Shown here piece after piece: positions 488-16,643 of a stretch of 18,806 nt of DNA. The translations under genes and the position numbers were made by a program. The notes beneath the pieces were generated by a model. The model did not search any database. It saw only the letters and a list, made by a program, of their open reading frames with translations, and was not told where the DNA came from. The DNA is taken from positions 1 through 18,806 of the forward strand of contig JABANP010000761.1 of NCBI GenBank assembly GCA_013115135.1. Direction: 5' to 3'. This DNA comes from Perkinsus olseni. Taxonomy: Eukaryota; Perkinsozoa; Perkinsida; Perkinsidae. The number at the start of each line of letters is the position of its first letter. The first letter of the stretch is position 1.

Positions 488-527
488 TACGAATTTCGTA
501 CTACGAATTTCGTAGATGAATTTCGTA
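488..527. repeat. Composite array, S = TACGAA
   Basis: TACGAA-T-TTCGTA-C-TACGAA (488-507) continues as T-TTCGTA, then a variant GATGAA-T-TTCGTA, giving alternating direct and inverted arms. The base before the first S (G) is the complement of spacer y; x does not match the following base. Probably more than one event. Confidence 0.9.
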
Positions 528-552
528 TCAGATATAAGCGAGCCGATGCCTG

Positions 553-572
553 TCAGGATTCCTGACTCAGGA
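553..572. repeat. 20-nt composite S-x-S'-y-S, S = TCAGGA
   Basis: Exact; x = T, y = C. Flanks G and A are the complements of y and x. Confidence 0.95.
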
Positions 573-890
573 AGGTAGCCAGTGCTGCACTAAAACTTGT
601 GAAAGATTGATGGTCGTACTTGATTCGCCGTCTGAAAGATTTCCTGCGTTATTTACCGAGTTATCGGTCAAGTCTCCATCTGAAAGATTGTCGGTCTTTT
701 GAGCATATGATTCGCGCCATGCATAGGCTTATACTCACCATCCTGTGGAATTGACACAGCAGAGTTGTATCGACCTAAAACCCCACGATTCCGTGCAGTT
801 GCTCGTCCACGCCGCAAGCCAGCCATTCTTCTATTTTCTGGGATGGACCTAAGGGTACTAGTAACAAAGTAGAAAGCCGATGTTCTTCTC

Positions 891-2446
891 TCACGGTGGC
901 CGGCTTTCTAAGTAGGTTTCCACCGCATATCCGTGCCCACAGCATCCCCAGTCACGGTACTCCTTACAAGTACAGCTAGGAGGGATCCTCTGACGGCCGA
1001 ACCCTGTCTGCTGTTGTTGAGGCGAGACTGTGACGAGGTAGTAACAGAAATAGAGGCTCATGACCTCTGCCAAAGTTAAATCATCATCTGAAAAGTAATA
1101 CAAATTCCCGAAGACATGTCATTTAGAGACGTCACGGACCTCCGTCGAGCTCATCCAGCAAAATCCCTCGGAGGAAGACCTGAATAGTCTCTCTCATTTC
1201 GGCATCGGTTTGCTGCCCCGGCGAACGGTTATTCGGGAGCAAGAAATATCGTGTTCCAACGTTGTTCTCCACCATATCAGGTATCATAGCTGTGACCTAT
1301 AGAAATCGCGTCAAGCAGAAGAGCCTCCTGAGAAGACATCAAGCGGGTTAGCACTTACCTCTGCAACGCACCCACGTTGATAGAACTTAGTTCCCCGAAG
1401 CTTCATATCGTTCTTGTATTCCACTGCATTGATAGTTTCTGGCCTCTTCACGTAATGTTGAGGGCTCGATAGTTTGAGTGACGTTACAACCTAGCCGTGA
1501 TCATGTTCCACATTAGCGATACCAGTGTACAAGCAGTCAGAAGACGTACTTTGCGAATTTTTGCCGCGAAAGCAGGCATGTTCAGCCGCTGACTCCCCAT
1601 AATCCTTGTATGCGTTTTGTGAAAGGACTCTACGATGTTTGTCAAGACCTGACACACCTCGGGGATAGACCTACGAATCGTGTGATACGATTCACGGAGA
1701 AACGGCGCTGGCAGACATGTATACAGAATGTGTACTGCAGACAGTACGCCAGATGGGGAGTTACTACCTGATTTCCAACAACACCTTCATTCGTTACGGC
1801 GATATTCGGATAGCCATACTGTTCGGTGTCTAAAGTCCTCCTCAAATATTCTCCACCTCGGGGAGAAACGCCAGTGACGGCGTCGACCATGGTGTCGGAG
1901 ACTAACTCGTTCAGGGCATCGGTAGGAGACGCGTGCAACCAGTACTTATGGCGCTTCAACTAGCGATAAACTGACTCTAAATGCTTCCCAGTATTCTTAA
2001 CGCTTACGATATTGAAGCCCTCACCAAGAGTGCTCTTATTGTCTTTGAGATTTTTGGTTAAGTGGAAGTAGCAACGTGCTGACAGTCGGAAGCTGAATAA
2101 CCCTCAAGTTCGGATTGAGCTTACCATTCCTCACGTTAGGGAGGACCTCGCGACATGCTTTGAGAGCACCTTGATGGGCGTCGTGAACACAGAGGTTCAC
2201 GACACTTTGCAGTGTACTCTCACCCAACGTTAAGGCTTTGACCAACGTGTCTAGGTGTACCAACAGATGATAGTACACGTCATAGCACTCCTCGTTGATG
2301 ATAGCCATGAAGAAAGGGACGAAGGTATGCCTATATTGGCGACGAGAAGCATCGAACCTAACAGTTGAAGCTACAGCGACAGACATCCAGCGAAAGATGC
2401 TACCATATTCTCGAGGATCCGACCCATGCGACTTTCTGGCTCCCAC
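891..2446 (-). pseudogene. MULE transposase remnant with SWIM zinc finger and short introns
   Basis: MULE transposases cut and paste their element; this copy is broken. Reading down the minus strand: a transposase core from 2446 with a VPFFMAI strand, then HDAHQGA (likely the second catalytic aspartate). A 46-nt GT-AG intron at 2079-2124 follows, and splicing it yields the diagnostic CYFHLTKN motif (CxFH). An in-frame TAG lies at 1960-1962. A probable intron at 1671-1767 leads to a TNIVESFHKT stretch, matching the usual TNN-x-x-E-x-(F/W)-H segment. Further introns are likely at 1297-1358 (donor GTAAGT) and 1088-1139. The C-terminal exon carries a SWIM finger (CTC...CCGH) at about 935-974 and stops at 891. 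The first catalytic aspartate region is not recognisable. Expected family length is 600-900 residues; roughly 400 can be traced. A WRKY/FLYWCH-like YYRCT motif at about 3690-3790 may be its displaced N-terminal finger, with low certainty. Confidence 0.8.
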
Positions 2447-2725
2447 GAATTATTTTGTTCTGTGCATCCATGTATAGCGGGAATCCCGAGGGCATGGAGC
2501 GTATGAACCAGAGTAATGAAGCTAGCATACCTGATTTTCACAGTACAGTGCCCCCATCCTTTATCTTATCTTGCTCCGCCGATCATACAGGCGAAGTTGT
2601 CTCCCCAGTACCCACCGTGGAACACGAACTCTCTCGCGGGTATCCCAGAGACGACAGGTCAAGCTCAAACCATCAGAAGAATTGTTACATGGTACTAATC
2701 CTTGGACACCCCAATCCGGAAGAGG

Positions 2726-2745
2726 ATAAGCGGCTTATCATAAGC
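2726..2745. repeat. 20-nt composite, S = ATAAGC
   Basis: Exact; x = G, y = C; flanks G and C obey the complement rule. Inside the MULE. Confidence 0.95.
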
Positions 2746-2887
2746 CACACAGGCATTATAGTTGCGAAATAGCGAAGCGCCAATCCCTCCCGTGATGGCC
2801 AGTAATCTCTCCATTACTACGCCCCCGGGAAGTGGTTCCCTCTTACTACAATCCACTAGAAGTACGGCAATAGCCACAGCAATAACA

Positions 2888-2907
2888 CCATGAATCATGG
2901 TCCATGA
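2888..2907. repeat. 20-nt composite, S = CCATGA
   Basis: Exact; x = A, y = T; flanks A and T obey the rule. Inside the MULE. Confidence 0.95.
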
Positions 2908-3222
2908 TATCCTGAAAGAACCATAAGTGCAGGATGCGTAAGGCGTACGCCGACATCCGTGGCCATACTTGTCAACGTATTCCAGAAGAGCATCTACCAC
3001 TGCATGATCCCCATTTCAGATTCCCAATCATCGCTTGCTGCAGCCGAACTATCCATTGAACATGCGTGGTAGGAGACAAGCGCGCGCCACGGCGATCGAT
3101 TCGGTGGCTGATGTGAGCGCAACTTGTATTCGACTAACTATTACTTGCTAGTTTCTCAACTCGCGTTCCATATAACGGATTGCCTAAGGCATTCGTTTGA
3201 AATTTGTAGACCGTGGTTCTTG

Positions 3223-3242: not shown

Positions 3243-3416
3243 GGTTCGAAGTATCGGTAAGATGTCGTCTTGAAACCGACGCTCACCCCGTGCTGCCAAG
3301 CGAAATAGAGCTTTCATGTAAAGCCAGTTATACTTTCTGGATGCACAACGCAGTTTGCGTGGGAGGCTCCCGCTGGAACACTACTCTCGGAGTACACTCG
3401 TGGCGGCCTCCGCTAG

Positions 3417-3436
3417 CTCCAGTCTGGGGCCCCCAG
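3417..3436. repeat. Decayed composite, S near CCCCAG
   Basis: CTCCAG-T-CTGGGG-C-CCCCAG; one mismatch in the first arm; y follows the flank rule, x does not. Confidence 0.5.
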
Positions 3437-3911
3437 CGGAGCCAACATTATCGACCCGACAAGCGTTTCAATGTCACTTGCAAGGAAGTAAGTTCGATGG
3501 ATGGAATCCAACCCTCCCTCTCAACTTGGGAGTCGGAATCCCGCAGCGGAATCGTTAAAGATAACATGACGTACTCAGCACGTACACCACGTACAAACCT
3601 TGAATTTGTCCACTGAGAATCTCCATCAGACGCTGTTGCTCAGCCACGGTTGTAGAAACCTCAAACTTGAAACTACCAGGATGAAGGAACAACGAGCTTT
3701 GTACAGTACATCGATAGTAAAGCACACATTCACATTTATCAGGACTCCTGATGCATCACCGTATCTGTATATTACACAGTACAACATTCCTGCCACCCTG
3801 GAAAGTGTATGACATTCAAAAGACACAACCCTTTGATTATCTTCTTGCGAGCTCGCTTCGCTCGCTCGCCTAATCTAGGCATTAGATGCGTGGCTTAAGC
3901 GACGCAGTTTA

Positions 3912-4009
3912 TTGCATAGATCAGCAAGTATTGCTTAGATTTCAGGGGTTGGCTTGGATTTGTATGATTTGCATAGATTAGATAAGCTTGCATAGATTAG
4001 ACCAATTTT
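3912..4009 (-). repeat. Subterminal motif array, right end of the MULE
   Basis: On the plus strand the reverse complement motif (TTGCATAGATTA and variants) occurs near 3912, 3931, 3951, 3969 and 3989, a period of 18-20 nt, about two helical turns. It mirrors the array at 1-115. The two cleanest copies are nearest the outer end. Confidence 0.65.
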
Positions 4010-4043
4010 GCATTTCATTGTTGTACACGGAGTCGTGCAACAA

Positions 4044-4063
4044 GATGGTCACCATCTGATGGT
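4044..4063. repeat. 20-nt composite, S = GATGGT, with empty site in repeat copy 2
   Basis: Exact; x = C, y = T; flanks A and G obey the rule. The homologous site at 16015-16020 has a single GATGGT, a 14-bp difference. Confidence 0.97.
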
Positions 4064-4101
4064 GTTGATCCCGATGTGGGGCTGAACCGGAACTAGCTTA
4101 G

Positions 4102-4121
4102 TGATGGTCCATCACTGATGG
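4102..4121. repeat. 20-nt composite, S = TGATGG (shared with 16064-16083)
   Basis: Exact; x = T, y = C; flanks G and A obey the rule. Present in both copies of the short repeat, so it is older than their separation. Confidence 0.95.
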
Positions 4122-4479
4122 ATCGCGAGTCTTCTGGAGGTATGGACGGAGTCACATACCGTCGGTGAAGCCGGCCGTGTGGGGACATAATGTCCCGGAC
4201 ATTCGACACAATGGTGCAGCATTGGGACACCAGCTGCACAGCTAGCGCTAGGATCAGACTCTGATTCTGCCTTCGGCTACTCGAGTTGAGTTGACTCATT
4301 CATATTCGGGAGGAAGACGGCTGCGTCCCTGCGGAGACGCGTAGGTCGCGCCGCCAGGTCTCTCTTTCGTTTTAAGCCACCCTCCCTGAACCCTGCAAAA
4401 CCGAGAGTGTGGGTGGGCACGGGGTCGTCACCAGGGTCGTTGGTCCACGGAAAGAAAGTCCGACTTCATTTCCCGAATT

Positions 4480-4540
4480 GAAATAAATAGGAAAAAAGGA
4501 AAAATATGGGAAATAAAGGAAAAAAATAGGAAATTTATTC
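4480..4540. other. A-rich tract
   Basis: The plus strand is almost pure purine with repeated GGAAAAAA-type units. It may be a decayed 3' tail of a retroelement or part of the 3' flank of the minus-strand gene to its right; nothing more can be said. Confidence 0.4.
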
Positions 4541-4549
4541 TCAAGTCGC

Positions 4550-4758: not shown

Positions 4759-5259
4759 TTAGACTCTCCAGTGGAGAGAGGCTCCGACAGACAGCGGCCC
4801 ACTGTTGGATGAGGGCCTGATAAGCAGATCGCCCTCACTACTATCGGCTGAAAGGCTCGCCGACGACTCGTCGGCGACCAGGATCGAATCTATGTCACTC
4901 GCAAGTGTGTGCAAATATCTTATCATTCGGGCGATATCGACCTTAAACTCACGAGACTCGTAATACGAGCTTCTATTTATCCGCGACCGACTATTGTCCG
5001 TTGGACTCCCAACAAAGATGAGACAGCTTGAGCTGCCCGACTCAACCAGTCAGGTTAGAAGCGTGTGACAGAACTCCTCCCGCTTAGCCGTGAGTTCCGA
5101 CCCGTAGTACGATCGTCGATCGACCGCATTACATGCAACTTGCAAGATAATCGTCAGCTTATAGGTCCCAGGTTCAATTCGTAGCGCATCATTTCTCTGC
5201 ATTGTCAGTCAAGTCAGCTCCATGGCCACAGGCACGATGTTCTTGATAGATTCGGACAT
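4759..5259 (-). CDS. Unknown intron-containing gene
   Basis: A single minus-strand frame stays open from 5259 to a TAA at 4759-4761 except for two TGA codons, both in a context of TGA followed by CTG. Each TGA lies just upstream of a good branch-point and acceptor (CTGAC...ATGCAG; CTAAC...GGGCAG), so they are best explained as intronic. The model has exons 5236-5259, 5111-5196 and 4759-5032, with introns 5197-5235 (weak donor GTGCCT) and 5033-5110 (donor GTACTA). Phases agree, giving about 127 residues. The protein starts MSESIKNI, has a hydrophobic KLTIILQVACNA strand, and ends in a serine-rich acidic segment (ILVADESSASLSADSSEGD). No family recognised. Alternatives are TGA readthrough or a decaying gene. 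Two decayed composite elements (4861-4880, 4950-4969) lie inside the last exon. Confidence 0.45.
4861..4880. repeat. Composite with one mismatch, S = CGACGA
   Basis: CGACGA-C-TCGTCG-G-CGACCA; both spacers follow the flank rule. Lies in the last exon of the gene at 4759-5259. Confidence 0.75.
4950..4969. repeat. Composite with one mismatch, S = TACGAG
   Basis: CACGAG-A-CTCGTA-A-TACGAG; y follows the flank rule, x does not. Confidence 0.6.
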
Positions 5260-5810: not shown

Positions 5811-6369
5811 GCAATCTGGGGAATCTGAGTCGTTACGGGGGTCCTGCTCCTGGCGATGCTCGCTACGTTATCTACGACGAGCCTTTCGCGTAGGAGCATC
5901 GTTTCCAGCTACTGGAGCGCCAGCATGGTCATGGTCATCGTCGGGAGTGGCGCGTAACCCTCAGAATCTGAAGCTCAGTTGTACTGTAAATTTACACCTT
6001 TACTTTCAAAATATTCAGCAAAGATCGAAGATTCTTGATTGAAACTGAATTCCTCGCAACAATCGCCGGCGTCTTATACCTGACATACCTTCCAAAGTCT
6101 CCCAATGGAAGACAGAACACAGTGTGTCACCCTCTTTTTGCCACACTGTGGCCCACAGTCGTGATATAACCATCATATTATGGCCGTGTACTGTATGATA
6201 TTACCGTGAGACGTTATATCACAACGCTTCCGATTCTTTGAAGAATCGAAGGCGATTTTCCGGATTATCGCTCGCATGATGTGAGTCACATCTACATCTG
6301 TCTCAAATACTTCATGCTGACATGCTCAAGCTTAGCAGCCGAGCGCCTCAGCTCGAGCCAATGATTGTT

Positions 6370-7859
6370 CTATTTCAGCTTCCATTCTCTCGCTATATCA
6401 AGAGCTTTGGAAAGCTTATGAGGTGACACCCAAGATGCTCCGAACGTCGTCAAAGTCTTGTCCTTATTCTTGAACTTAGTGAGTTCCCCTGCTGTAGCTG
6501 CGGCCACTTCATCCCTCACAAAATCAATGCTTTCTCGTTTGAGGGGAATACTGAGAGAAAGCCATTTTCCCAAGCTGCGTGGCTGCCAGAGACACTCTGT
6601 TACTTGCTTACTTCATCTGCTCGTTCGACTCAAATTCAATCGAGCCAATAACAGCACAAGCTGATCTATAGTTCCAATAGGCTGAGCCTGTGACGTATCC
6701 TGGTATCTGAGTGACGCAAGAGGGTTGCAATGATGATACTAAATTAGTATTACTAATATCGTCGTACTACTATCGATCATTCTGCAATGACATTATCATC
6801 ATCACAACCGAGCCCACGTGCGCGAAACTAGTCCTTACACCTTTCAGATAGGTCCAAATTTGCCAGGGATGAATTTCTTCCTCATCATATACCATTGCTT
6901 CCTCGAACTCCCTCCGTACAATCCAGGCTATGACTAGCGGAGCGAAGGTCTCAGGATGGTCGCACATGAGCTTGTTCATGACTTTGATGTCAGGTATCTC
7001 TGTTAATGTTATTCCTGTTGTTTCCAGCTCCTTGAGAACCATCTTTCCCCATTGGATTATGGCCTCTTCACACGACTCGCCACCGCCGATCCTATTCAGT
7101 ACTCCCGCTATCGGGAGGCTTCCAGGACTGGGGAACCACTGGAGATGGACCCTTTTGCTTTGCTCTTCCACCAACACCCATTCATCATCTTCGAGTTCAA
7201 ACGCGTTGGCGGCATCGTCTTGCTCATGGCTGCTCTCATTGCCCTTCAATCTATCGCAGTGAAACACTCATCTCCAAGGAGTAGCTCGATGAAGACCTAC
7301 ATGGTTTCTCCAAGAGTAGCATAGTCGATGACATACTTGCCCTTTTTCTTGTCAAATCTGCCAGCGACCGAAGCTTGCCACTACACGAAGCACTGTAGGA
7401 GTTCAAATTTTTATCTCGACCGCTTCCTTAAAGGAAGTTCCTTTCCCTCACCGGCTCTATAATACTCTCCAGTTTGCTTGTGCGGAATCCTTTGAAGTCG
7501 CTGGTCTCGAGGACGCAGTCCGAATGACTTCTAATGTGGCGTTCATCGCCTGTCACAATAACGACGAGTCCAAACAATATATGGCTATCTGCGCCAAGCC
7601 AGGTACGACATATCGACAGGGTTTGCCAGGCAGACGACCGGGTCGTCACGACCATCAGCTCTGACTGTGCGTGCTACACCACCCACCAGTGCGTCTAGCC
7701 CTCGGTCTCGCGGCACGATGGTGAACGGCCTGTTGAATGAGTGAGGCATTTATTCGTGCGAAACTTGTGACTTCTCACCTTGAACAACCTCCCCTCGATT
7801 TGAGCGGCCGAGAAGAGGACGATTGCGACTTCGAAACAGGGCATTCCCTTCATCTCAAC
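6370..7859 (-). CDS. Family X gene, copy A: multi-exon protein of unknown function
   Basis: Seven exons can be joined on the minus strand with every phase agreeing: 7779-7859, 7687-7729, 7452-7588, 7301-7380, 6839-7250, 6612-6706, 6370-6574 (stop). Introns are 49, 98, 71, 50, 132 and 37 nt, all GT-AG (donors GTGAGA, GTGGGT, GTGAGG, GTAGGT, GTAAGG, GTAAGC). They give about 350 residues plus an unresolved N-terminus: an upstream basic, serine-rich frame at 7862-8068 begins with GTG here but ATG in copy B, and its joining exon was not resolved. The protein has an acidic stretch (FELEDDEWVLVEE), a HPETFAP segment, and a conserved C-terminus (IPLKRESIDFVRDEVAAAT ... KLSKALDIAREW). No domain recognised. 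Coding differences from copy B in the 412-nt exon are few (about four conservative replacements, two silent). The three composite elements inside the gene fall in introns. Confidence 0.7.
6737..6756. repeat. 20-nt composite, S = TACTAA (shared with 17341-17360)
   Basis: Exact; x = A, y = T; flanks A and T obey the rule. Inside the 132-nt intron of family X copy A. Confidence 0.95.
7424..7443. repeat. 20-nt composite, S = TTCCTT (decayed partner at 18028-18047)
   Basis: Exact; x = A, y = G; flanks C and T obey the rule. Inside the 71-nt intron of copy A. The partner in copy B has one substitution in each outer arm. Confidence 0.95.
7634..7653. repeat. 20-nt composite, S = ACGACC, with empty site in copy B
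   Basis: Exact; x = G, y = C. Copy B has a single ACGACC at 18238-18243 followed by C, which matches the complement of x, while copy A itself now has A there. Net difference 14 bp, inside an intron. Confidence 0.97.
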
Positions 7860-8270: not shown

Positions 8271-8304
8271 CAGCAGGACTATACGCCGGGCGTGTTACTC
8301 CTGG

Positions 8305-8324
8305 TTATGCGGCATAACTTATGC
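8305..8324. repeat. 20-nt composite, S = TTATGC
   Basis: Exact; x = G, y = C; flanks G and C obey the rule. Upstream of paralogue 3. Confidence 0.95.
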
Positions 8325-8343
8325 CTGCCAGGCAGGCGCTGCG
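8324..8343. repeat. Decayed composite, S near CCTGCC, overlapping the previous one by 1 nt
   Basis: CCTGCC-A-GGCAGG-C-GCTGCG; first two arms perfect, third with two changes; both spacers follow the flank rule. Confidence 0.6.
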
Positions 8344-8431
8344 TGCTCCTAGGCCGAAATCGTGGACACCATGAGATGTATTTCCAGCGACTCGAGCACG
8401 AGGACGGCAGGTTGGATGGCAATACCCTGAT

Positions 8432-8451
8432 TCCCTCAGAGGGAATCCCTC
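8432..8451. repeat. 20-nt composite, S = TCCCTC
   Basis: Exact; x = A, y = A; flanks T and T obey the rule. Confidence 0.95.
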
Positions 8452-8476
8452 TCGAGGAACTGAATCGGCATCCTCG

Positions 8477-8501: not shown

Positions 8502-8535
8502 AGTAAATCAATTTATATGGATACACTGTTATTCT

Positions 8536-8555
8536 TTCAGTTACTGAAATTCAGT
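8536..8555. repeat. 20-nt composite, S = TTCAGT
   Basis: Exact; x = T, y = A; flanks T and A obey the rule. It duplicates a CTTTCAG acceptor-like end just upstream of the paralogue 3 exon remnant. Confidence 0.95.
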
Positions 8556-8802
8556 ACAGCCTGTGAATCACTTATATGGGGATATACGGTGACAGGAGCC
8601 GAGCTACCGCCTTCCGATCAGAATCCCGCTTGAGCGGAGTAGTCTCGATTTCGTGAGGTCTGAGGTAGCTGCAGCTACCAAAGGAAAAATTGAAAGATTC
8701 AAGGCGGAGGACATGTCCCTGATGAATCTCGGAACATTCTGGCGATCACTTCGGAAGCTTCCTCAAGAGTATAGCATCGCCAAGGCATGGGAGTTGCAGT
8801 AG
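8536..8802 (+). pseudogene. Family X paralogue 3, decayed, plus strand
   Basis: The last exon (8604-8802, ending TAG) encodes RIPLERSSLDFVRSEVAAAT followed by KL...SIAKAWELQ, clearly related to the C-terminus of copies A and B (IPLKRESIDFVRDEVAAAT ... KLSKALDIAREWKLK). It even starts with the same one-base completion after an AG acceptor. The residues just upstream (GYTVTGA) resemble the start of the preceding exon of A (GYVTGSA), but the rest of that exon is missing, so this copy is deleted internally. Upstream, an open frame at 8292-8633 is disrupted by palindromic insertions (8305, 8324, 8432, 8477, 8536). Protein identity to A is roughly 40-50 percent by eye over the last exon, so it is an old duplicate. 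Confidence 0.7.
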
Positions 8803-8921
8803 CAACCGTCGATCAACGGTCGCTGGAACTTCCGGAGAAAATGACGATGACGATGAATAAGTATGGTGTCGAATGTTTGTTGAGAGTGTCGCTCTTGGGT
8901 TCGAGTGGGTTGCCAAACCGT

Positions 8922-8941
8922 GCCAAAGTTTGGCAGCCAAA
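8922..8941. repeat. 20-nt composite, S = GCCAAA
   Basis: Exact; x = G, y = A; flanks T and C obey the rule. Confidence 0.95.
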
Positions 8942-9182
8942 CGTTGTGGCCAATGTGTTGGTCTTGCAGAATGGCAGCCTGATCTCCCGATCAACAACGG
9001 AAAGTGAATCTCAGGCCGGATGAGAGGACCACCTTACAGTAACCCTCCATTACGGAACCGAGCAGCAGCGAGTATCGAATATACGCTCGGCTTACTAAGC
9101 AGACTCGCATGCGCATAGCAACGCCCAGCGGCAGCCACTCGATGATATCAGATGAAACGACGGACCGAATGTGATAACTCAC

Positions 9183-9286: not shown

Positions 9287-9424
9287 CTGAGGGGATAGAG
9301 AGAGAAGTACGAGAACACCGTATCACCTAACTATATCACTAGATTGCAACGAGTCGTTAATATCGGCCACAGGCAACCCGAACTATATTCATGGAGTTCA
9401 GCCCAATGGATGCCATAGATCAAC

Positions 9425-9444
9425 TCACAAGTTGTGAGTCACAA
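9425..9444. repeat. 20-nt composite, S = TCACAA
   Basis: Exact; x = G, y = G; flanks C and C obey the rule. It appears to interrupt the exon upstream of paralogue 4. Confidence 0.95.
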
Positions 9445-10331
9445 CCCCAAGACAGTGTTGGGGCAAGTGTTGGCAACACTTTTGACTGAGTATTTGAGTA
9501 GACCTCTGAGGGCAACTCAGGCGAACTCTTTGACTGGATGGGCCGAGATTTTATTTTATGGGCGATTTTGATGGGTGAAATGAGATGGATGGAATGACAC
9601 CGGATGAAATTGTAGTGGTCGACTTTACACTGGAACAGATGACCACTGGACGAAATTATACTGGATCAGTTGGGTTACCCCGCTGCCAAGCACCGCCTAG
9701 TTGTGCAGAAATTTGTGGTCACGCACGCACCCACGGACGGACGTACGGACGCACGCCGCACACGAGTGACCGTGAACTGTGATATACGCTCCGCTCGCTT
9801 CGCTCGCTCCGCAAATTATTGTGAAATTTCAGTAAACTTTTAACCTACGCAGTGAAATCATTTTACACTACTTAATGACGAGCGAAGGATCGATTCTGAG
9901 AATGGAGGGTGGGTTCACTAAAAACCCGTCCAGAAGAAAGAAACTGCAGCACTTGCTGCGAGAGCTTCTACGAGCTGCCACAAAATGAGGATTATATCCT
10001 CGCTATGGCCGTCCTCGCGTGATCTCGACTCATCATCGACAGAACACTACCCCTATGTGAATCGTGTCGAACAACATCTTCCACAAGTAGCTTCACTCAG
10101 TGCCATGGCAAGGGTCAACCTGTAATCCTGAGAATCATCGTAGCCGGGGAGCCAGAGACAGGAAGAAGCTCCTTGTGCAGGTGATGCCTTTCACAGCTAG
10201 AGGTGTCAGAAAGTCTATTGCTTCCGCAGAACCCTTTGCAGTGCGGACAGTGAACAGAACACTTTCGATCTCAGCACGGCTACGAAATTGACTTCCCTGG
10301 AAAACTCTCGATGCCGCCAAGCAACAATACA
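9445..10331. other. Intergenic, no gene seen
   Basis: Contains hairpins (AAGTGTTG-G-CAACACTT at 9465-9481), a run of GATGG/GAAAT-rich sequence at 9570-9660, a short ACGGACG tandem at about 9730-9755, and a CGCTCGCTTCGCTCGC segment at about 9790 that resembles one at about 3850. The open frames at 9585-9782 and 10100-10291 show no domain or coding-like composition. Confidence 0.5.
10301..10304 (-). terminator. Possible RNA polymerase III terminator (T4)
   Basis: The first TTTT on the minus strand after the tRNA lies about 28 nt downstream of its 3' end, a usual but somewhat distant position for Pol III termination. Confidence 0.45.
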
Positions 10332-10403: not shown

Positions 10404-11498
10404 TTAAAGATGTCGCCAAGGCAAACTATGTGTCCACCGGCACAGGAAATCTCCGATCTCGAATCAGCTGAGCCGGCTTGAGAAGCTTCCAAAAAGCAGA
10501 ACTGCATGGGGCATGCTGTTGATTATGTCAACATTATGAAAATTGTGAGGTATTGTTCTGGCGGTCGTAAGGGATGTTCTCCCATTCACTGACGTCGAGG
10601 CGGAAGTGCCTGACGAAGTCCCTCCAACTCTCCATAGAAATCATGAAATTAATCTCAGATTCGTCAGAGCAGGGTTACACGACAACAGGACGGCTCACAA
10701 ACTGCAACATTGACTGACCCGCCCTGGAATTCTCTTCAGTGACATGAGCGTGATCGTTAATGGCATTAACACGATATTAACTTAATGTCGAAACAAGGTT
10801 ACCATGTAGGAAGGCAACTATGAGCGGGGTAGAAGGGTGAGAAGATGCAGCTTGGACGCATACGGCAAATAGCAAGCGATTAATTCCTGCTGAAGCGAAT
10901 CGGGACAGGCCTCAGCGTTGCACGCTGAGAGTGCGTCTTTCCTTGCGCTAGCACGATTATATGGGTGACGCATATCAATGATATGGTATGATATCATACA
11001 TGCCGGTCGCATGGAAGCGCCTCTCTAGTACACAAGCGGGCATGCTCGATACGCACTATATCGGTTCAGATACTCCGGTATGGGAAACGTCCACCCAATG
11101 GTTTGGGCGATTTCAGTCGATTTAATTCCCGTGACAGGGAAAGGCCGGGACACTGAGAATTACTCAGTGGGAAATCTTGTAGACATTGACGGCCGGGCCG
11201 TCACGGTCCGAGACCCCCGGGCTGAATCAACTTTCCATCGAGAGCCCAGGATAGATAAAGCTTCTCGACTACCCGGCCTTCTCGGCCAGTATCTAAGCAA
11301 ATCAAAACCTCCGAGGTCCAACTCTGCATATGCCCACCTCAACCTGACGCTGCGCCCTCTCGAGACTCAGCACGCGCGAAATCGTGACATCCGGCGAGAT
11401 TATCGAGACACCGTCCTAGCGTAGAGAAAGACTCGCGATCCGCCTGGGCCGATACATAAGGGCAAGATCTCATAAGCTTACGTAGCACAAGTTGCTCT
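10404..11498. other. Intergenic, no supported gene
   Basis: Palindromes include GTTAATG-G-CATTAAC (10756-10770), GTATGATATCATAC (10986-10999) and CTCAGCG/CGCTGAG (10911-10929). A 114-codon open frame at 11080-11424 is not supported: it carries a decayed composite insertion (11189-11208) and further short hairpins, and resembles no family I know. Confidence 0.45.
11189..11208. repeat. Composite with one mismatch, S = ACGGCC
   Basis: ACGGCC-G-GGCCGT-C-ACGGTC; both spacers follow the flank rule. Confidence 0.8.
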
Positions 11499-11909: not shown

Positions 11910-12301
11910 GGGCGGGCCACCCTGGCTCGCCCAGAATCGTTGGCGACTGTTATATTCAGCGCCGAGTTATTATCAATTATTATTCTTCACGAATCATTTA
12001 AGAGATCATTCACTTTTTTCAAGATGAATATTTTATCGCAAGTCAGGCCGGCAAAGCTCTTGAAGTTGACTATTATGTGGTTGAGTTGTGAATCAAGGAG
12101 AAGCACGGGGCATTCCGGAGACTCCATGGATGTGATGTTTGCTTAGGCATGGTTTCACTCTCCGTGAAGTCCGGTGGACACAAATATTGGTCTATAGTGT
12201 CTATCTCCGTAGCACTAAGAGTGGTTTCAGCCCAAACCAAAATTCCCATATCGCAGGCGATGCGATCTCTACGGGTAACGAGCGTATAGCCTTCTATTGC
12301 T

Positions 12302-12321
12302 TAAGAGACTCTTAATAAGAG
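12302..12321. repeat. 20-nt composite, S = TAAGAG
   Basis: Exact; x = A, y = A; flanks T and T obey the rule. Confidence 0.95.
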
Positions 12322-12512
12322 TCTTCGACCAAAGCTGCATGATGCAACTTGCAACAATCTCAGTCCAACAGGGGTGGTATGTGGATACTGAGGTAAGGGG
12401 AGATCCAAATTCTTAACTCAAAGATAAAAACACACGATTATTAATAGGCGTTGGGTCATTGACATTTCCTACTCCGGATTGAAAAATCACAATCATAAGG
12501 ACTTGATTTGAA

Positions 12513-12532: not shown

Positions 12533-12607
12533 TAGTGGTTCGAAAATCAGAAGACCTCTTTTGCTCGGCGAAATGTGGTATAGCCCCCTCTCAGTGAGCT
12601 GGTGTTT

Positions 12608-12630
12608 TCCCGTGAGGGACTCTCACGGGA
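12608..12630. repeat. Hairpin, 9-bp arms, 5-nt loop
   Basis: TCCCGTGAG pairs perfectly with CTCACGGGA around a GGACT loop. It is not of the 20-nt composite type. Confidence 0.7.
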
Positions 12631-12901
12631 ATAGCGCCTCGGCAGACTTTGAACAGTAACTGTTGCAATTTTGTTCCAGTTCAAAATTTGAGCTGCGCTA
12701 GCCCGCTCGTCCGCACGCCTTTTTTGACTCGCAATTTGGCAAGGTTGGGCTTCGTGTTCCCTGCGCTGGGTATGCAAAACAACAAATGTTCGTACTCGTT
12801 CGGCGAGATTCGACTGTTTCGCGTCAAACTGACTGGAATGAGCTGCTACTTTGGAGAATTTCAACAGAAATTCACCAAACTTGGCAGAGCTTCGCCGTTG
12901 T

Positions 12902-12920
12902 CGTAAAGAGCCTCTTTACG
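12902..12920. repeat. Perfect palindrome, 9-bp arms, 1-nt centre
   Basis: CGTAAAGAG and CTCTTTACG flank one C. There is no third arm copy on either side, so it is either a decayed or a different event type. Confidence 0.7.
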
Positions 12921-13069
12921 CGTGTTAGGCCAGAAAAAGCTCCTAAGCTTGCTTCGCTGAGAGTGCCGTCCGTTTTTTTGCTGGCGGTATTCGTTCTAAG
13001 ACAGCATTCGGGAAAACAGGCGCCACCTTCTCTGTTGAAACCGTCCATCTTCGACACGTGAACGCGTCA

Positions 13070-13089
13070 GCTGAAATTCAGCTGCTGAA
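13070..13089. repeat. 20-nt composite, S = GCTGAA
   Basis: Exact; x = A, y = T; flanks A and T obey the rule. Confidence 0.95.
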
Positions 13090-13144
13090 TGATTGAAAGG
13101 GTTAGGAGTTCTCCTCGAAAGTCTTCGTTATCTCTGTTCCTGTC

Positions 13145-13164
13145 TTGATGTCATCAAGTTGATG
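13145..13164. repeat. 20-nt composite, S = TTGATG
   Basis: Exact; x = T, y = G; flanks C and A obey the rule. Confidence 0.95.
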
Positions 13165-13312
13165 ACAGTGTCATCCACTCATTCGAACCGGGTTTTCATT
13201 GACTTTGCTAGTTTTGGTGACTCGCTGTTGCCGTATCCGGTGATCGCGAAGTTCACGTCATGAGCTTTCGCGAGAGCTTTAGGGGTTTTCATTTTCTTTC
13301 TCCGCTGGATCG

Positions 13313-13332
13313 CTATGACTCATAGCCTGTGA
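13313..13332. repeat. Composite with one mismatch, S = CTATGA
   Basis: CTATGA-C-TCATAG-C-CTGTGA; y follows the flank rule, x does not. Confidence 0.7.
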
Positions 13333-13645
13333 AGAGCCTGCGTGATGTACAGTATCGTGATACCTCGTTTCTTAGGTCCCGTGCGCTTTGCCATACCCAT
13401 TGCGCAGAAGGCAGTAAATGGGGCATCGAAATAAAGTCCTATGGCTATGGGACGATGGATGGCCGGGTTGAGCGCTGTCACTCGGCGACGCTTGTAGTAG
13501 CGCAGAAAAAAACATCGTCATGATGCTACTTTGGAGTCCGATGATCGGACATCGTATCAATTGAGTGATAAATTCGAAGTCTCGCAAACAAATAGAGTGC
13601 AACAAGTAACTCGGCAGCCATGCTCGCATCCCCATCACTGCGCAG

Positions 13646-13665
13646 CCTGGGCCCCAGGCCCTGGG
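13646..13665. repeat. 20-nt composite, S = CCTGGG
   Basis: Exact; x = C, y = C; flanks G and G obey the rule. Confidence 0.95.
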
Positions 13666-13798
13666 GAGAGTGTTGACCCGCCCTACTTGCCATCTGCATA
13701 CCGGCATTGCAATAGGCATTTGTACAGCCTCTCTCTGGCTTCGCCTAGAGCTGGGAATGTGATGTGAGCGTAGTCTAATAGCCCGTAGCTCGTTTTCA

Positions 13799-13855
13799 TG
13801 ATGCATCTTCAGCTTGCTCAAAAATAATATTTTTGAGCAAGCTGAAGATGCATCA
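13799..13855. repeat. Large perfect hairpin, 27-bp arms, 3-nt loop
   Basis: The arm starting TGATGCATCTTCAGC is repeated in exact reverse complement after an AAT loop, with no mismatch over 27 bp. It is the longest palindrome in the window. Perfect identity of the arms implies recent origin or ongoing conversion. Confidence 0.95.
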
Positions 13856-13874
13856 CGATATTTTTAAAATATCG
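13856..13874. repeat. Perfect palindrome, 9-bp arms, 1-nt centre, abutting the large hairpin
   Basis: CGATATTTT and AAAATATCG flank one T, starting at the base after the 27-bp-arm hairpin, so the two form a double hairpin. Confidence 0.8.
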
Positions 13875-14026
13875 AGATGTTGGAACGGTGCGTGCCAATC
13901 AATGGTCTCGGGGCAGAGTGCAAGGACTCGGCGGCATTAATGGTACGGTGGCGCTCCCCAGTCGCCGCAGCCCAGTCTGGGCACGATGCCGGTAGGTCAC
14001 CCAGCTAGCCACTCGCTCATCCGCAG

Positions 14027-14046
14027 GCTGACTGTCAGCCGCTGTC
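14027..14046. repeat. Composite with one mismatch, S = GCTGAC
   Basis: GCTGAC-T-GTCAGC-C-GCTGTC; both spacers follow the flank rule. Overlaps the stop of the second MULE frame. Confidence 0.8.
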
Positions 14047-14466
14047 AGCTCTTGAGATGAATCCGGCCATTGCTGCCTTGGGCTTGCATCTTCGTCGTCT
14101 TCTTCATACAGAATTCCGCGAAACCACTCATAAGATGTCCTCTTCTCGGTTTTCGTACATGCGTAGTGCTTGCATGGTAGACACGGGCCGTGAAGTTCAA
14201 GGCCCGCCCCAGCTCACGTAACGCCAAACGATAGGTAGTCTCGGACTTGCCGGAAAGCAAAGCATATGCCGGTTGGATAAACTAGTTACCGATAGCACCA
14301 GTAACAGCTAAAGTCTGGGCGAATCCATGCTGTATGATGAAGAAGGAAGAGTCAATGGAGAGTATTTCCACCTCGTCCCATCGGCGAATGCATTCGTCAG
14401 CAGCGAAAACAGCCAACCCTACGGCCTCATCATTGAACTGCACGAACATCTCGTTGGTGAAGGTGT
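14045..14466 (-). pseudogene. Second MULE transposase remnant
   Basis: The minus-strand frame reads ...NDEAVGLAVFAADECIRRW, EVEILSIDSSFFIIQ, GFAQTLAVTG, an in-frame TAG at 14282-14284, then FIQPAYALLSGKSETTYRL. This is the start of the MULE transposase domain: the first catalytic aspartate in an ID-x-(T/S)F motif, a Q-L-hydrophobic strand, and the P-x-x-YALL...K...TY segment. The second aspartate, CxFH motif and zinc fingers are missing, so only about 140 residues remain. It differs from the transposase at 891-2446 and so represents a second MULE lineage. The composite element at 14522-14541 lies just upstream of the frame. Confidence 0.7.
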
Positions 14467-14521
14467 TCCAACCATGCTACTCGATGTTCTGATGCGTCTG
14501 TTTCAGGGCAGAAGAGACCTA

Positions 14522-14541
14522 TTGGACGGTCCAATTTGGAC
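14522..14541. repeat. 20-nt composite, S = TTGGAC
   Basis: All three arms exact; x = G, y = T; y follows the flank rule, x does not (a base has probably changed since). Confidence 0.93.
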
Positions 14542-14727
14542 TCGTTGGCAGGCCGGGAAGTCTCTCGACTCCAGCCCGTCCGTCCCGACGGCAATACAGC
14601 ACGGACAATGCACCTTAAAACGTGAATTGAATTCGATAAGAGTGAAGGTAATTTCAATATTCGCCACACAGTGACACCGGTGTTACATGCTAATATCCCT
14701 TAGTGAGACTCGCAACAGATCCTCGAG

Positions 14728-14747
14728 TCCTTCTGAAGGACTCCTTC
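14728..14747. repeat. 20-nt composite, S = TCCTTC
   Basis: Exact; x = T, y = C; flanks G and A obey the rule. Its last three bases are the first three of the next element. Confidence 0.95.
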
Positions 14748-14764
14748 AGCGGCTGAAGTTCAGC
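14745..14764. repeat. 20-nt composite, S = TTCAGC, overlapping the previous one
   Basis: Exact; x = G, y = G; flanks C and C obey the rule. The 3-nt overlap implies that one insertion used the edge of the other as target. Confidence 0.95.
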
Positions 14765-15119
14765 CACCCTCCGACGCCTCATTCTCCCAGGCTGGAAGAC
14801 TCAGCGAAGACGTTCGAAAAAAATCCAACCGCGTGCGCTATGGCCCTCGATATACACATGACACAACTGTCGAAGCTCGACAGAAGCATTTCAACGGAGA
14901 CACTCATTGCATGACAATGAGAATGAACATGCGGCATACATCGCTTCGCGGCTGGTTGGCGTGACCTGCCTCCTTTGCCAACTTTGCTGAGCTTGTGCGA
15001 ATCGCGACAAGATTCGCGAGAACGCCAACATGCCCGAATCTGCTCTCGCCAACTTCTAGGCGAGATCGGGCGGGGGCATGAGTCAAGCAACGATCTAACT
15101 TCCCCGAAAAGGTGAGGAA

Positions 15120-15470
15120 TCCGCGCGGAAATTTTGTTAAGGCCGAGACCTTGTCTCTGTCTTCCTTCGACTTCGCCTGGCGGAATTCGTCTAGCCATGG
15201 GCCTTGTGCTTCGCCTTCATCTCGTCGATATTCCTCTGTACAGACTGTAATTGGCCTAAATCAGCATCGTCATCGCCATCATCTTCATCTTTTCTCAGAC
15301 TTCGGCAGCTCTGCGCCTGGGTTGCTCGGGCATGATCCCAGGGATAAGGTCCCTGCTGCGCCCCTGATCATTTGATGAGCGCTTGCCGCCGGAGGACACG
15401 TCGGCCGTGCCCTCCTGTCGAGCCCGGTAGGTGACCCCGTCGGCCAGGGCCCTCTATCGCATCGTCGTCT
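15120..15470 (-). pseudogene. Frameshifted fragment with acidic and coiled-coil-like segments
   Basis: Three consecutive open pieces on the minus strand read as one protein if two single-step frame changes are allowed: RALADGVTYRARQEGTADV...PEQPRRRAAE, then LRKDEDDGDDDADLGQLQSV and IDEMKAKHKAHG, then LDEFRQAKSKEDRDKVSALT. The middle part is acidic and the rest charged and helix-prone, suggesting a coiled coil. The frame changes fall near GAAGTCTGAG and CCATGGCTAG; no convincing intron explains them, so this is called a broken gene. It may be continuous with the frame at 15570-15833 on the same strand. No family recognised. Confidence 0.4.
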
Positions 15471-15569
15471 CTACTCGGCCAAGCTGCTCACTCCCTTTCA
15501 GTCGCGGCAAACACCGTGCTTGCGCGGAAGATCTCGTAACTTACGAACCTCATCCCGCTTACCTAGGTT

Positions 15570-15833
15570 TGGCAAGGCTCCTATGGCCTGCCTCACGAGC
15601 TGCTTGCTTTGGGAGATATCATTCGCAAACACGCTGACGAGCGAGTTGTAAATCTTACGTAAATGGGAGAGCGAACCCTCAATGTGACCCGAGTTATCGC
15701 ACCTGAGTTCGGCAACAGCCTCGTGAGAGTAGTCCTGAAGGTGCTGCCGTCGGCAATGCCGCGAGCTGTCTAGTAGCACCTGAGCATCTCCTTCGAACCA
15801 GCTCATCAAGGGACCCTTCGTTACCGGAACCAT
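15570..15833 (-). CDS. Possible first exon of an unknown gene
   Basis: The ATG at 15833 opens MVPVTKGPLMSWFEGDAQVL..., followed by SHIEG-like and HLRKIYNSLVSVFANDI segments with coding-like composition. A strong donor (CTAG followed by GTAAGC) ends the plausible exon near 15570; the frame runs on to 15498 if unspliced. No composite insertion occurs between 14765 and 15941, the longest free stretch in this half of the window, in keeping with a gene under selection. Function unknown. Confidence 0.4.
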
Positions 15834-15941
15834 GTTTTCAGCTTCGGTTGCTAGCCCGAGAGTAACCCGTTTAGCTCTCGAGAGTAAAAGGATCTCGAGC
15901 TCGGGATGGAATAGGAATGAGCCGTCCTCCCCATCCTAGCC

Positions 15942-15961
15942 CCCCAGCCTGGGGGGCCCAG
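15942..15961. repeat. Composite with one mismatch, S = CCCCAG
   Basis: CCCCAG-C-CTGGGG-G-GCCCAG; both spacers follow the flank rule. Confidence 0.8.
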
Positions 15962-15982
15962 GCCATTGCGTTGCTCTCCAAA

Positions 15983-16098
15983 ATTTCATTGTATTACACG
16001 GAGTCGTGCAACAAGATGGTGTTGATTCCGATGTTGGGCTGATTCGGGACTTGACTAGCTTAGTGATGGTCCATCACTGATGGATCGCGAGTTTCTGA
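15983..16098 (+). repeat. Short dispersed repeat, copy 2 (partner 4010-4136)
   Basis: Homologous to 4010-4136. It holds the unoccupied GATGGT site (16015-16020) and the shared TGATGG composite element (16064-16083). Its right edge runs straight into the TTCTGA composite element and long repeat B. Confidence 0.8.
16064..16083. repeat. 20-nt composite, S = TGATGG (shared with 4102-4121)
   Basis: Identical counterpart of the element at 4102-4121 in copy 2 of the short repeat. Confidence 0.95.
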
Positions 16099-16112
16099 AT
16101 CAGAAATTCTGA
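16093..16112. repeat. 20-nt composite, S = TTCTGA, at the junction of the short repeat and long repeat B
   Basis: Exact; x = A, y = A; flanks T and T obey the rule. It bridges the end of the 4010-type repeat and the first bases of long repeat B. Confidence 0.95.
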
Positions 16113-16623
16113 TGCGGAGTTTGAACCTCCGAGTTTCACACAAGCGTTGCATCGCAGGAGACTCCTGCCAGGAGTTGGCTCAACGAGTTAGGCTACTATC
16201 CCGAGTCCGAGGCATTTCTCATAGGAGTGTCTTGAACACAAGGAAAATCACCTTAGAGATTCCGAGTCGGAATCTGCAATCTGGGGAATCTGAGTCGTTA
16301 CGGGGGTCCTGCTCCTGGCGATGCTCGCTACGTTATCTACGACGAGCCTTTCGCGTAGGAGCATCGTTTCCAGCTACTGGAGCGCCAGCATGGTCATGGT
16401 CATCGTCGGGAGTGGCGCGTAACCCTCAGAATCTGAAGCTCAGATGTCGTTATACTGTAAATTTACACCTTTACATTTAAAATATTCAACAAAGATCGAA
16501 GATTCTTGATTGAAACTGAATTCCTCGCAACAATCGCCGGCGTCTTATATCTGACATACCTTCCAAAGTCTCCCAATGGAAGACAGAACACAGTGTGTCA
16601 CCCTCCTTTCGCCACACTGTGGC

Positions 16624-16643
16624 CCACAGACTGTGGGCCACAG
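16624..16643. repeat. 20-nt composite, S = CCACAG, with empty site in copy A
   Basis: Exact; x = A, y = G; flanks C and T obey the rule. Copy A has a single CCACAG at 6153-6158, a 14-bp difference. Confidence 0.97.

What the first reader, a model, noticed from the sequence alone, without database searches (positions are those of the whole stretch)
488..16643. A family of 20-nt direct-inverted-direct repeats with fixed geometry (S-x-S'-y-S)
At 23 independent sites a 6-mer S is followed by one base, the exact reverse complement of S, one base, and S again: 488, 553, 2726, 2888, 4044, 4102, 6737, 7424, 7634, 8305, 8432, 8536, 8922, 9425, 12302, 13070, 13145, 13646, 14522, 14728, 14745, 16093, 16624. 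S differs each time and shows no consensus I can see. The exact pattern needs 12 matched bases, so about 18806/4^12, or 0.001, sites are expected by chance. About ten further sites fit with 1-2 mismatches. The layout is the same on both strands. I know of no described element with this geometry.
Basis: seen in the sequence. Interest (0 to 1): 0.97.

Follow-up and report, generated by a model that had tools for sequence, protein, structure and literature searches.

The report
Stereotyped scars of departed transposons
This DNA, likely from the shellfish parasite Perkinsus olseni, is dotted with 22-letter marks that share one rigid layout but no common sequence, each likely the scar where a hAT-type jumping gene landed, left again, and had its broken ends sealed in the same way.

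Summary
All 23 listed sites are exact and the window holds 29; 200 dinucleotide shuffles gave none. The true unit is 22 nt, not 20: for an 8-mer T it reads T[1-7] + revcomp(T) + T[2-8], with T differing from site to site. |T| = 8 peaks sharply in the window and in a 200-kb sample of the same 61.5-Mb genome, which is very likely Perkinsus olseni. Paralogous copies show the pre-event site: a single T. Each event adds 14 bp, by far the commonest insertion of 3 bp or more between paralogs (31 of 82 distinct). An 8-bp target, hairpins with a one-base tip, an nTnnnnAn-like bias and hAT transposases in the genome point to hAT excision scars. Best reading: the element inserts at T and excises, leaving hairpin-capped flanks that open beyond the duplication and anneal through the 8-nt T/T' microhomology. 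A minority of longer one-base-tip palindromes fit joins without annealing. hAT footprints are known; this near-invariant complete-inversion class, extrapolated to ~11,000 exact copies, is a new variant. No element was found at any scarred site, and the source element is not identified.

The parts
494..515 (.). second scar overlapping the first, T=ATTCGTAG, 13/14
552..573 (.). scar, T=GTCAGGAA, 14/14
2725..2746 (.). scar, T=GATAAGCC, 14/14
2887..2908 (.). scar, T=ACCATGAT, 14/14
4043..4064 (.). scar, T=AGATGGTG, 14/14; the paralogous site at 16014-16021 is empty (single T)
   Evidence: read directly in the sequence
16014..16021 (.). empty site, single T=AGATGGTG, paralogous to the scar at 4043
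4101..4122 (.). scar, T=GTGATGGA, 14/14 (shared with 16063)
4182..4203 (.). scar, T=GGGACATT, 14/14
6152..6159 (.). empty site, single T=CCCACAGT, paralogous to the scar at 16623
6736..6757 (.). scar, T=ATACTAAT, 14/14; present in 3 of 6 paralogous copies, 3 empty
7423..7444 (.). scar, T=CTTCCTTT, 14/14; older, at 12/14 or better in 5 of 6 copies
7633..7654 (.). scar, T=GACGACCC, 13/14; present in 1 of 6 copies, 5 empty (T with one mismatch in C242)
18237..18244 (.). empty site, single T=GACGACCC, paralogous to the scar at 7633
8304..8325 (.). scar, T=GTTATGCC, 14/14; empty in C216 (exact T) and C215 (one mismatch)
8431..8452 (.). scar, T=TTCCCTCT, 14/14; empty in 3 of 3 distinct aligned paralogs (C215, C216, C242)
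8535..8556 (.). scar, T=TTTCAGTA, 14/14; empty in C242 (exact T), C215 and C216 (one mismatch each)
8921..8942 (.). scar, T=TGCCAAAC, 14/14; empty in L007 (one mismatch)
9424..9445 (.). scar, T=CTCACAAC, 14/14
12301..12322 (.). scar, T=TTAAGAGT, 14/14
13069..13090 (.). scar, T=AGCTGAAT, 14/14
13144..13165 (.). scar, T=CTTGATGA, 14/14
13645..13666 (.). scar, T=GCCTGGGG, 14/14
14521..14542 (.). scar, T=ATTGGACC, 13/14
14727..14748 (.). scar, T=GTCCTTCA, 14/14
14744..14765 (.). scar overlapping the previous one, T=CTTCAGCC, 14/14
16063..16084 (.). scar, T=GTGATGGA, 14/14
16092..16113 (.). scar, T=TTTCTGAT, 14/14; single T in the copies on C215, C216 and C242
16154..16175 (.). scar, T=GCAGGAGT, 14/14
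16616..16637 (.). overlapping register, T=TCTGTGGG, 13/14
16623..16644 (.). scar, T=CCCACAGT, 14/14; empty at 6152-6159 and in L006
17340..17361 (.). scar, T=ATACTAAT, 14/14 (paralog of 6736)
4860..4881 (.). likely decayed scar, 13/14
6271..6292 (.). likely decayed scar, T=CTCACATC, 13/14 in all 6 copies
11188..11209 (.). likely decayed scar, 13/14
14026..14047 (.). likely decayed scar, 13/14
15941..15962 (.). likely decayed scar, 13/14
16875..16896 (.). likely decayed scar, 13/14 (paralog of 6271)

Best explanation
Each 22-nt site is most likely the excision scar of a hAT-type DNA transposon whose 8-bp target duplication would have been rebuilt as T[1-7] + revcomp(T) + T[2-8] when hairpin-capped ends opened and annealed through that duplication. 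Inferred steps, in order. (1) The element inserts at the 8-mer T = pSq, giving T-element-T. (2) The transposase nicks one base into each flank and the free 3' end attacks the other strand, leaving hairpins ...pS-q'S'p'... on the left and ...q'S'-pSq... on the right, each with a one-base tip. (3) The hairpins are nicked at or beyond the far edge of T, exposing 3' tails that carry q'S'p' and pSq. (4) These tails are exact 8-nt complements; they anneal, any overhanging flaps are trimmed, 7 nt are filled in on each side, and the strands are ligated. The product is pS q'S'p' Sq, 14 bp longer than the original T. The constant size would come from the transposon's constant 8-bp stagger, not from a size-measuring nuclease. 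Shown here: the layout, the single-T empty site, the +14, the sharp peak at |T| = 8, the one-base tip, the target bias, and hAT transposases in the genome. Inferred: that an element was once inserted at each site, that it was a hAT, and the order of repair steps.
For: Layout and length: 24 sites in the window and 37 in the 200-kb sample match 14/14 at |T| = 8; at |T| = 7 there are 2 and 0, at |T| = 9 none in either; 200 shuffles of the window gave none. Empty sites: paralogs carry a single T. Of 31 distinct 14-nt insertions between paralogs, 29 are this structure at 13/14 or better and 2 are not (7/14 and 9/14); no other insertion size of 3 nt or more exceeds 8 distinct cases ('distinct' is by sequence, so one event seen in diverged copies may count twice). 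In a six-copy alignment of ~1.8 kb four scars are private to one copy, one is in two copies and one in three, so at least the private ones are gains. One-base tip: perfect palindromes with exactly 7-nt arms number 146 for a 1-nt tip, against 7-16 for each tip size of 0 or 2-8 nt, in 208.8 kb; with arms of 11 nt or more, 14 against 4 for the eight other tip sizes together. Longer hairpin openings: of 22 unique 1-nt-tip palindromes with arms of 11-31 nt, 12 have a third copy of the tip 6-mer within 40 nt outside, against 2 for the reversed 6-mer; examples L005:871, L006:2085, L023:4084. Target bias: T at position 2 in 46 of 102 (p = 9e-6), A at position 7 in 35 of 102 (p = 0.014), both in 18 against 6.0 expected; Hermes prefers nTnnnnAn and makes 8-bp duplications (PMC10368747, passages; PMC2803484, passages). 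hAT machinery: 21 matches to the hAT dimerisation domain PF05699, all over its cut-off, and one element with TIR TAGAGATGGGCA flanked by the 8-bp duplication GTCCGGAG in L032. Literature: Ac/Ds footprints are palindromes of flanking DNA centred on the complement of the base next to the element (PMC5873905, passages), and hAT enzymes leave hairpins on the flank (PMC6900584, passages; PMC4763223, passages).
Against: No element was seen sitting at a T that has a scar in a paralog. A scan of all sequence held at that time for exact 8-bp duplications around inverted ends (11 of 12, 60-8,000 bp apart) gave 7 hits: 5 are artefacts of one large palindrome (L016), 1 is L032 (fetched because it has hAT) and 1 (L027) does not look like hAT; so the 200-kb sample shows no convincing element against 37 exact scars. 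That scan cannot see elements with poor inverted ends or longer than the loci, and it gave more hits at duplications of 4 and 6 bp (66 and 19, not examined). The TIR 12-mer occurs 35 times genome-wide (reversed control 5) with only 2 paired copies. So elements are rare relative to scars. The classical short hAT footprint (pS q'p' Sq) is not above chance: 9 of 127 two-nt-spaced repeats, about 8 expected. In the one case where a hAT fragment and a related site without it could be compared (C204 against C206), the left junction is truncated and shows no duplication. 10 of 22 long palindromes lack the nearby third copy. The A-at-7 half of the target bias is weak taken alone. One exact site at |T| = 10 and a small excess at |T| = 4-6 in the sample are unexplained.
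Confidence: 0.77

Rival explanations
1. The scars come from excision by a transposase of another superfamily that also makes 8-bp duplications and flank hairpins (for example an undescribed alveolate lineage), not from a true hAT.
For: The source element was not found; PF05699 matches are few (21 listed, a lower bound) against thousands of extrapolated scars. Merlin elements occur in alveolates (PMC8101967, start of abstract in the listing).
Against: The one-base tip, the 8-bp length and the nTnnnnAn-like bias together match what is described for hAT. From recall, Merlin and P elements are not described as making flank hairpins; no call tested this.
Confidence: 0.1
2. Programmed or domesticated excision: a hAT-derived enzyme removes inserted DNA throughout the genome in a regulated way, as ciliates do with internal eliminated sequences (recalled), so elements are rare and scars abundant.
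For: Scars far outnumber detectable elements in the sample (37 exact against 0 convincing); a domesticated hAT that makes hairpin-capped breaks exists in Kluyveromyces (PMC4763223, passages).
Against: Scars differ between paralogs of 94.7-96.6% identity, which also fits ordinary jumping; no germline/soma or life-stage difference could be tested.
Confidence: 0.08
3. Replication template switching (snap-back synthesis) copies a short stretch in inverse orientation and returns, without any transposon.
For: Such events can create local S-S'-S layouts (recalled; not searched).
Against: It would not fix the length: |T| = 8 peaks with 37 exact sites against 0 at 7 and 0 at 9. It does not predict the +14 with both spacer bases complementary to the outer bases in 115 of 133 sites, nor the positional T/A bias.
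Confidence: 0.03
4. Sequencing, amplification or assembly artefact.
For: The genome is a draft of 968 contigs.
Against: Scars are shared and decayed: T=CTTCCTTT is found at 12/14 or better in 5 of 6 paralogs and T=CTCACATC at 13/14 in 6 of 6. Chimeras would not be 8-mer specific.
Confidence: 0.01

Closest known systems
Ac/Ds (hAT) excision footprints in plants, yeast and Candida albicans
   Same: Palindromic P-nucleotides copied from flanking DNA, centred on the complement of the base bordering the element; hairpin intermediates (PMC5873905, PMC1978519 and PMC4561436, passages).
   Different: Described footprints are heterogeneous and mostly short: 28 types in 128 C. albicans revertants with P-insertions of at most 3 nt; in yeast, arms up to 20 nt and 47% with arms of 3 nt or more (as quoted in PMC5873905). 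Here one complete 8-nt inversion dominates and the short class is not above chance.
Microhomology-dependent joining of transposon-induced hairpins (Yu et al. 2004, not held; cited in PMC4561436 and PMC5873905)
   Same: Joins after hAT excision use short homologies exposed between the two flanks.
   Different: The homology is described as under 6 bp (PMC4561436 passage); here it would be the full 8-bp duplication carried in inverse by both hairpins.
mPing/Tourist repair by target-duplication microhomology (PMC4561436, passages)
   Same: The duplicated target sequence itself supplies the homology that shapes the repair product.
   Different: mPing is modelled as a staggered cut within its 3-bp duplication that mostly restores the original site; here hairpins would invert an 8-bp duplication and add 14 bp.
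Kat1-induced hairpin breaks in Kluyveromyces lactis (PMC4763223, passages)
   Same: A hAT-derived enzyme leaves hairpin-capped host ends.
   Different: It acts in mating-type switching, not in scars across the genome.
Amoebophrya introner elements (PMC7789003, passages)
   Same: Short direct and inverted repeats spread through an alveolate genome.
   Different: Those are introns with inverted repeats of 8-20 nt and direct repeats of 3-5 nt; the marks here are 22 nt with no sequence of their own.

Membership tests
hAT excision footprint | 8-bp target duplication as the unit of the scar | tested here: met
   |T| = 8 peaks sharply; the empty site is a single T and the gain is 14 bp
hAT excision footprint | hairpin on the flank with a one-base tip (nick one base outside the element) | tested here: met
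   The trace of it: 1-nt-tip palindromes stand far above other tip sizes; both spacer rules hold in 115 of 133 sites. The hairpin itself is inferred
hAT excision footprint | extra bases come from flanking DNA, none from the element | tested here: met
   All 22 nt are derived from T at the 14/14 sites; no shared sequence among sites
hAT excision footprint | nTnnnnAn target preference (Hermes type) | tested here: met
   T2 in 46/102 and A7 in 35/102; a bias, not a strict motif
hAT excision footprint | hAT transposase in the same genome | tested here: met
   21 PF05699 matches over the cut-off; DUF4371 plus hAT dimerisation domain in L035
hAT excision footprint | element seen inserted at T in a related copy | tested here: inconclusive
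   Not seen in the paralogs held; one hAT copy with an 8-bp duplication exists at another site
hAT excision footprint | classical short footprint (two complemented bases between the duplications) | tested here: not met
   9 of 127, about 8 expected. I take this as a usual, not a defining, product; palindromic flanking DNA is the defining one
MITE or other repeat family | shared terminal or internal sequence among copies | tested here: not met
   102 unique exact scars with only a weak bias in T and no strong bias in 5-base flanks
Introner element | an intron-sized insert with conserved ends | tested here: not met
   The insert is 14 bp with site-specific sequence
Template-switch mutation | spread of inverted-segment lengths | tested here: not met
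   One dominant length class

The most novel reading that the evidence does not exclude
P. olseni runs a near-universal, possibly regulated excision system in which a hAT-type transposase clears insertions across the genome and a dedicated annealing route rebuilds each site as an inverted triplicate of its 8-bp target, leaving on the order of ten thousand permanent, dateable excision scars and almost no elements: a genome-wide elimination system in an alveolate outside the ciliates.
Probability: 0.12. Interest if true: 0.92.

Novelty: new variant of a known kind. Interest (0 to 1): 0.71.

Why it matters
If right, every scar records one past transposon insertion and its exit, with the target, the gained bases and an internal clock (decay of 14 redundant positions) all readable from sequence. 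That would allow a genome-wide census of excision events, which short and ambiguous footprints make hard. It would also show a repair outcome fixed by the transposon's own 8-bp stagger, testable in yeast with laboratory elements, and would point to a steady source of 14-bp insertions in this parasite: 31 of the 82 distinct insertions of 3 nt or more between paralogs are 14 nt long, and six presence/absence scars stand beside pairwise differences of 62-94 substitutions over ~1.8 kb.

Tried and rejected
Rejected: a repeat family with its own sequence (no consensus beyond the target bias); |S| = 6 as the natural unit (both spacer bases are determined in most sites); classical short hAT footprints as a second class (no excess); a period-8 tandem-duplication class (period 8: 82 against 50 in a null, but period 9 is 92 against 46, so no peak; period 14 is 132 against 50). 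Tried without result: finding the left end of the C204 hAT (none in 5.7 kb); an element/empty-site pair for the hAT copies (C206 lacks the fragment but shows no duplication; C775 and C301 diverge before the junction, read by eye); a TIR + duplication scan for the source element (hits for duplications of 4 to 11 bp were 66, 9, 19, 0, 7, 0, 2, 0); an extra segment of about 0.4-0.7 kb in C215, C216 and C242 at window ~16194, which by eye has no 8-bp duplication. Rfam (gathering) and tRNA scans of the window gave one tRNA-Thr only. I did not obtain other Perkinsus species, so conservation across the genus is untested. Literature: ten searches; among the papers listed (titles and starts of abstracts) none reports such scars in Perkinsus. 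Five named Perkinsus (20 of 2,837 listed; 33: 10 of 13; 49: 12 of 427; 51: 1 of 1; 59: 8 of 90) and five were on hAT, hairpins or footprints (14: 1 of 1; 23: 2 of 2; 37: 12 of 13; 42: 10 of 522; 55: 3 of 3). Most subscription journals are not held.

Full report
WHAT IS THERE. All 23 listed sites are exact and the window holds 29. The description can be sharpened. In S-x-S'-y-S, y is the complement of the base before the first S and x is the complement of the base after the last S. Over the window and loci L003-L048 each rule holds in 123 of 133 exact sites and both in 115. The unit is therefore 22 nt built from one 8-mer T = pSq: T[1-7], then the reverse complement of T, then T[2-8]. In the window 24 sites match 14 of 14 redundant positions, 11 match 13 and 14 match 12. 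In 200 dinucleotide-preserving shuffles the totals were 0, 2 and 16. Scanning |T| from 5 to 13 in the window and 4 to 14 in a 200-kb sample of the same genome, |T| = 8 stands out: exact counts in the sample for |T| = 7, 8 and 9 are 0, 37 and 0. Counts at |T| = 4, 5 and 6 were 83, 12 and 3, somewhat above plain arithmetic (about 49, 3 and 0.2), and one exact site turned up at |T| = 10; I did not follow these. The sample was 20 stretches of 10 kb that I placed at fixed coordinates on 20 of 968 contigs; one of them (L016) holds a large palindrome and was left out (except its target count), 39, 50 and of the long-palindrome count, but not or the density estimate.

WHERE IT IS. The window is contig C736 of a 61.5-Mb assembly of 968 contigs. 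A hAT transposase from that assembly (L035, contig C941) matches a database protein named FOZ60_016047 [Perkinsus olseni] whose longest contig is listed as 15,660 bases, the length of contig C816 here. Apart from 19 gapped columns that protein is identical to the C816 and C941 copies over 426-427 residues (identity outside the gap is my arithmetic from 95.7% over 445-446 columns). So the organism is very likely P. olseni, an alveolate. The scar density in the sample is 0.185 exact sites per kb (bootstrap 95% 0.095-0.29), which extrapolates to about 11,400 (5,800-17,800) in the genome. The window, at 1.28 per kb, is unusually rich. Counts per stretch are uneven, 0 to 9.

HOW IT ARISES. The window itself holds two diverged copies of one region (about 4.0-8.2 kb and 16.0-18.8 kb), and further copies lie on other contigs. 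Where one copy has a scar, another often has just one T: AGATGGTG at 4043 against 16014, GACGACCC at 7633 against 18237, CCCACAGT at 16623 against 6152, and TTTCTGAT at 16092 against three single-T copies. Over all pairwise alignments of the window with L003-L048 that passed the filter (80% identity, 150 columns) I found 171 distinct clean insertions, 82 of them of 3 nt or more. Of these 82, 31 are 14 nt long, and 29 of the 31 are this structure at 13/14 or better; the other two score 7 and 9. The next commonest size of 3 nt or more has 8 cases (one event in diverged copies can be counted more than once). In an alignment of six copies over about 1.8 kb, GACGACCC is private to window copy 1, GAGAAAGC to C242, CTTCTCAC to C215 and GCGCCTCA to C703 (for the last, three copies show a single T and two have other sequence there); ACATCTGT is in two copies and ATACTAAT in three. 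Two older marks are shared: CTTCCTTT at 12/14 or better in 5 of 6 and CTCACATC at 13/14 in 6 of 6. Pairwise differences are 62-94 substitutions. The scar is thus a gained state, gained repeatedly, adding 14 bp.

WHY hAT. Four features fit. First, T is 8 bp, the duplication length of hAT elements such as Hermes (PMC10368747, passage). Second, the palindromes have a one-base tip: with exactly 7-nt arms there are 146 such palindromes against 7-16 for each other tip size from 0 to 8, and with arms of 11 nt or more 14 against 4 in total for the others (each scar holds two such palindromes, so the scars likely supply most of the 146). That is what a nick one base outside the element, followed by hairpin formation on the flank, would leave; published Ac/Ds footprints are centred on the complement of the bordering base (PMC5873905, passages), and cleavage at the nucleotide flanking the insertion was inferred for Ds (PMC1978519, passages). 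RAG and hAT both leave hairpins on the flank (PMC6900584, passages). Third, T has a bias to T at position 2 (46 of 102, p = 9e-6) and A at position 7 (35 of 102, p = 0.014), both together in 18 against 6.0 expected, like the Hermes preference nTnnnnAn. Fourth, the genome has hAT transposases: 21 matches to PF05699, all over the curated cut-off, and an element in L032 with ends TAGAGATGGGCA and the duplication GTCCGGAG.

WHY ALWAYS THE SAME. After excision the left flank would end in the hairpin ...pS-q'S'p'... and the right in ...q'S'-pSq.... If both are opened at or beyond the far edge of T, their 3' tails carry q'S'p' and pSq, which are exact 8-nt complements. Annealing them, trimming flaps, filling 7 nt on each side and ligating gives pS q'S'p' Sq, the observed product, wherever beyond T the hairpins were opened. 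This is inference, but it needs no measuring enzyme. It predicts that joins made without annealing would leave longer palindromes with the same one-base tip. Such palindromes exist with arms up to 31 nt; 12 of 22 unique ones have a third copy of the tip 6-mer within 40 nt outside, against 2 for the reversed 6-mer, and 10 do not. It also fits the lack of classical short footprints (9 of 127 two-nt-spaced repeats, about 8 expected).

WHAT DOES NOT FIT OR IS MISSING. I found no element sitting at a T that is scarred elsewhere. Elements with clean 8-bp duplications and inverted ends are rare in the held sequence (7 hits, 5 of them artefacts of one palindrome), and the one TIR family searched has 35 exact end matches and 2 paired copies genome-wide (reversed-pattern control 5). 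One hAT fragment compared with a related site lacking it (C204 against C206) has a truncated left junction and no duplication. The scars may therefore come from a family I did not identify, one that excises so readily that few copies stay, or one now lost.

KNOWN AND NEW. Hairpin-derived hAT footprints are well known. In the passages read, they are heterogeneous and mostly short (PMC5873905), microhomologies under 6 bp are used in yeast (PMC4561436 on Yu et al. 2004, which is not held), and target-duplication homology shapes precise repair for mPing (PMC4561436). A single complete 8-nt inversion as the dominant product, at genome scale, did not appear among the papers listed in my ten searches of the held library (several listings were capped, and I saw titles and starts of abstracts). 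I file it as a new variant of a known kind.

Noticed in passing
window 4012-8158 and 15983-18806: Two copies of one region, 94-96% identical over the three longest aligned pieces, with further full or partial copies on C703, C215, C216, C242, C53 and C682; each window copy carries a 165-aa open frame on the minus strand; the one scanned (6773-7267) has no Pfam match at E 0.01.
   Followed up: partly
window 13796-13858: A palindrome with 28-nt arms and a one-base tip, followed by a second small palindrome; it may be a long-opened version of the same scar.
   Followed up: partly
window 8085-8133 and 18743-18781: Imperfect inverted repeat built on AGTGGTCACTTcAAGTGACCACT with TGCCAA/TTGGCA-type outer arms in the first copy; the core is kept in L004 and L006 too.
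   Followed up: no
window 10331-10404: tRNA-Thr (TGT) gene on the minus strand.
   Followed up: no
L016 about 3248-6113: A large palindrome in contig C100, spanning about 2.9 kb; it produced false TIR hits and was left out of several counts.
   Followed up: no
L028 4254-9782: A repeated family carrying one scar (T=CTGGTAGG, 12/14 or better) at six places, so some scars have been amplified with their host repeat.
   Followed up: no
L051: Two inserts relative to L049 and L050; one begins TGTCCA and ends TGGACA with a possible 3-bp duplication GGC (by eye), which would be a different transposon type.
   Followed up: no
L008 2681: A 28-nt insertion that reads as two successive 14-bp scar events at one place, like the overlapping scars at window 487/494 and 14727/14744.
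   Followed up: partly
L009-L028: Small excess of exact sites at |T| = 4-6 over plain arithmetic and one exact site at |T| = 10; not compared with shuffles.
   Followed up: no
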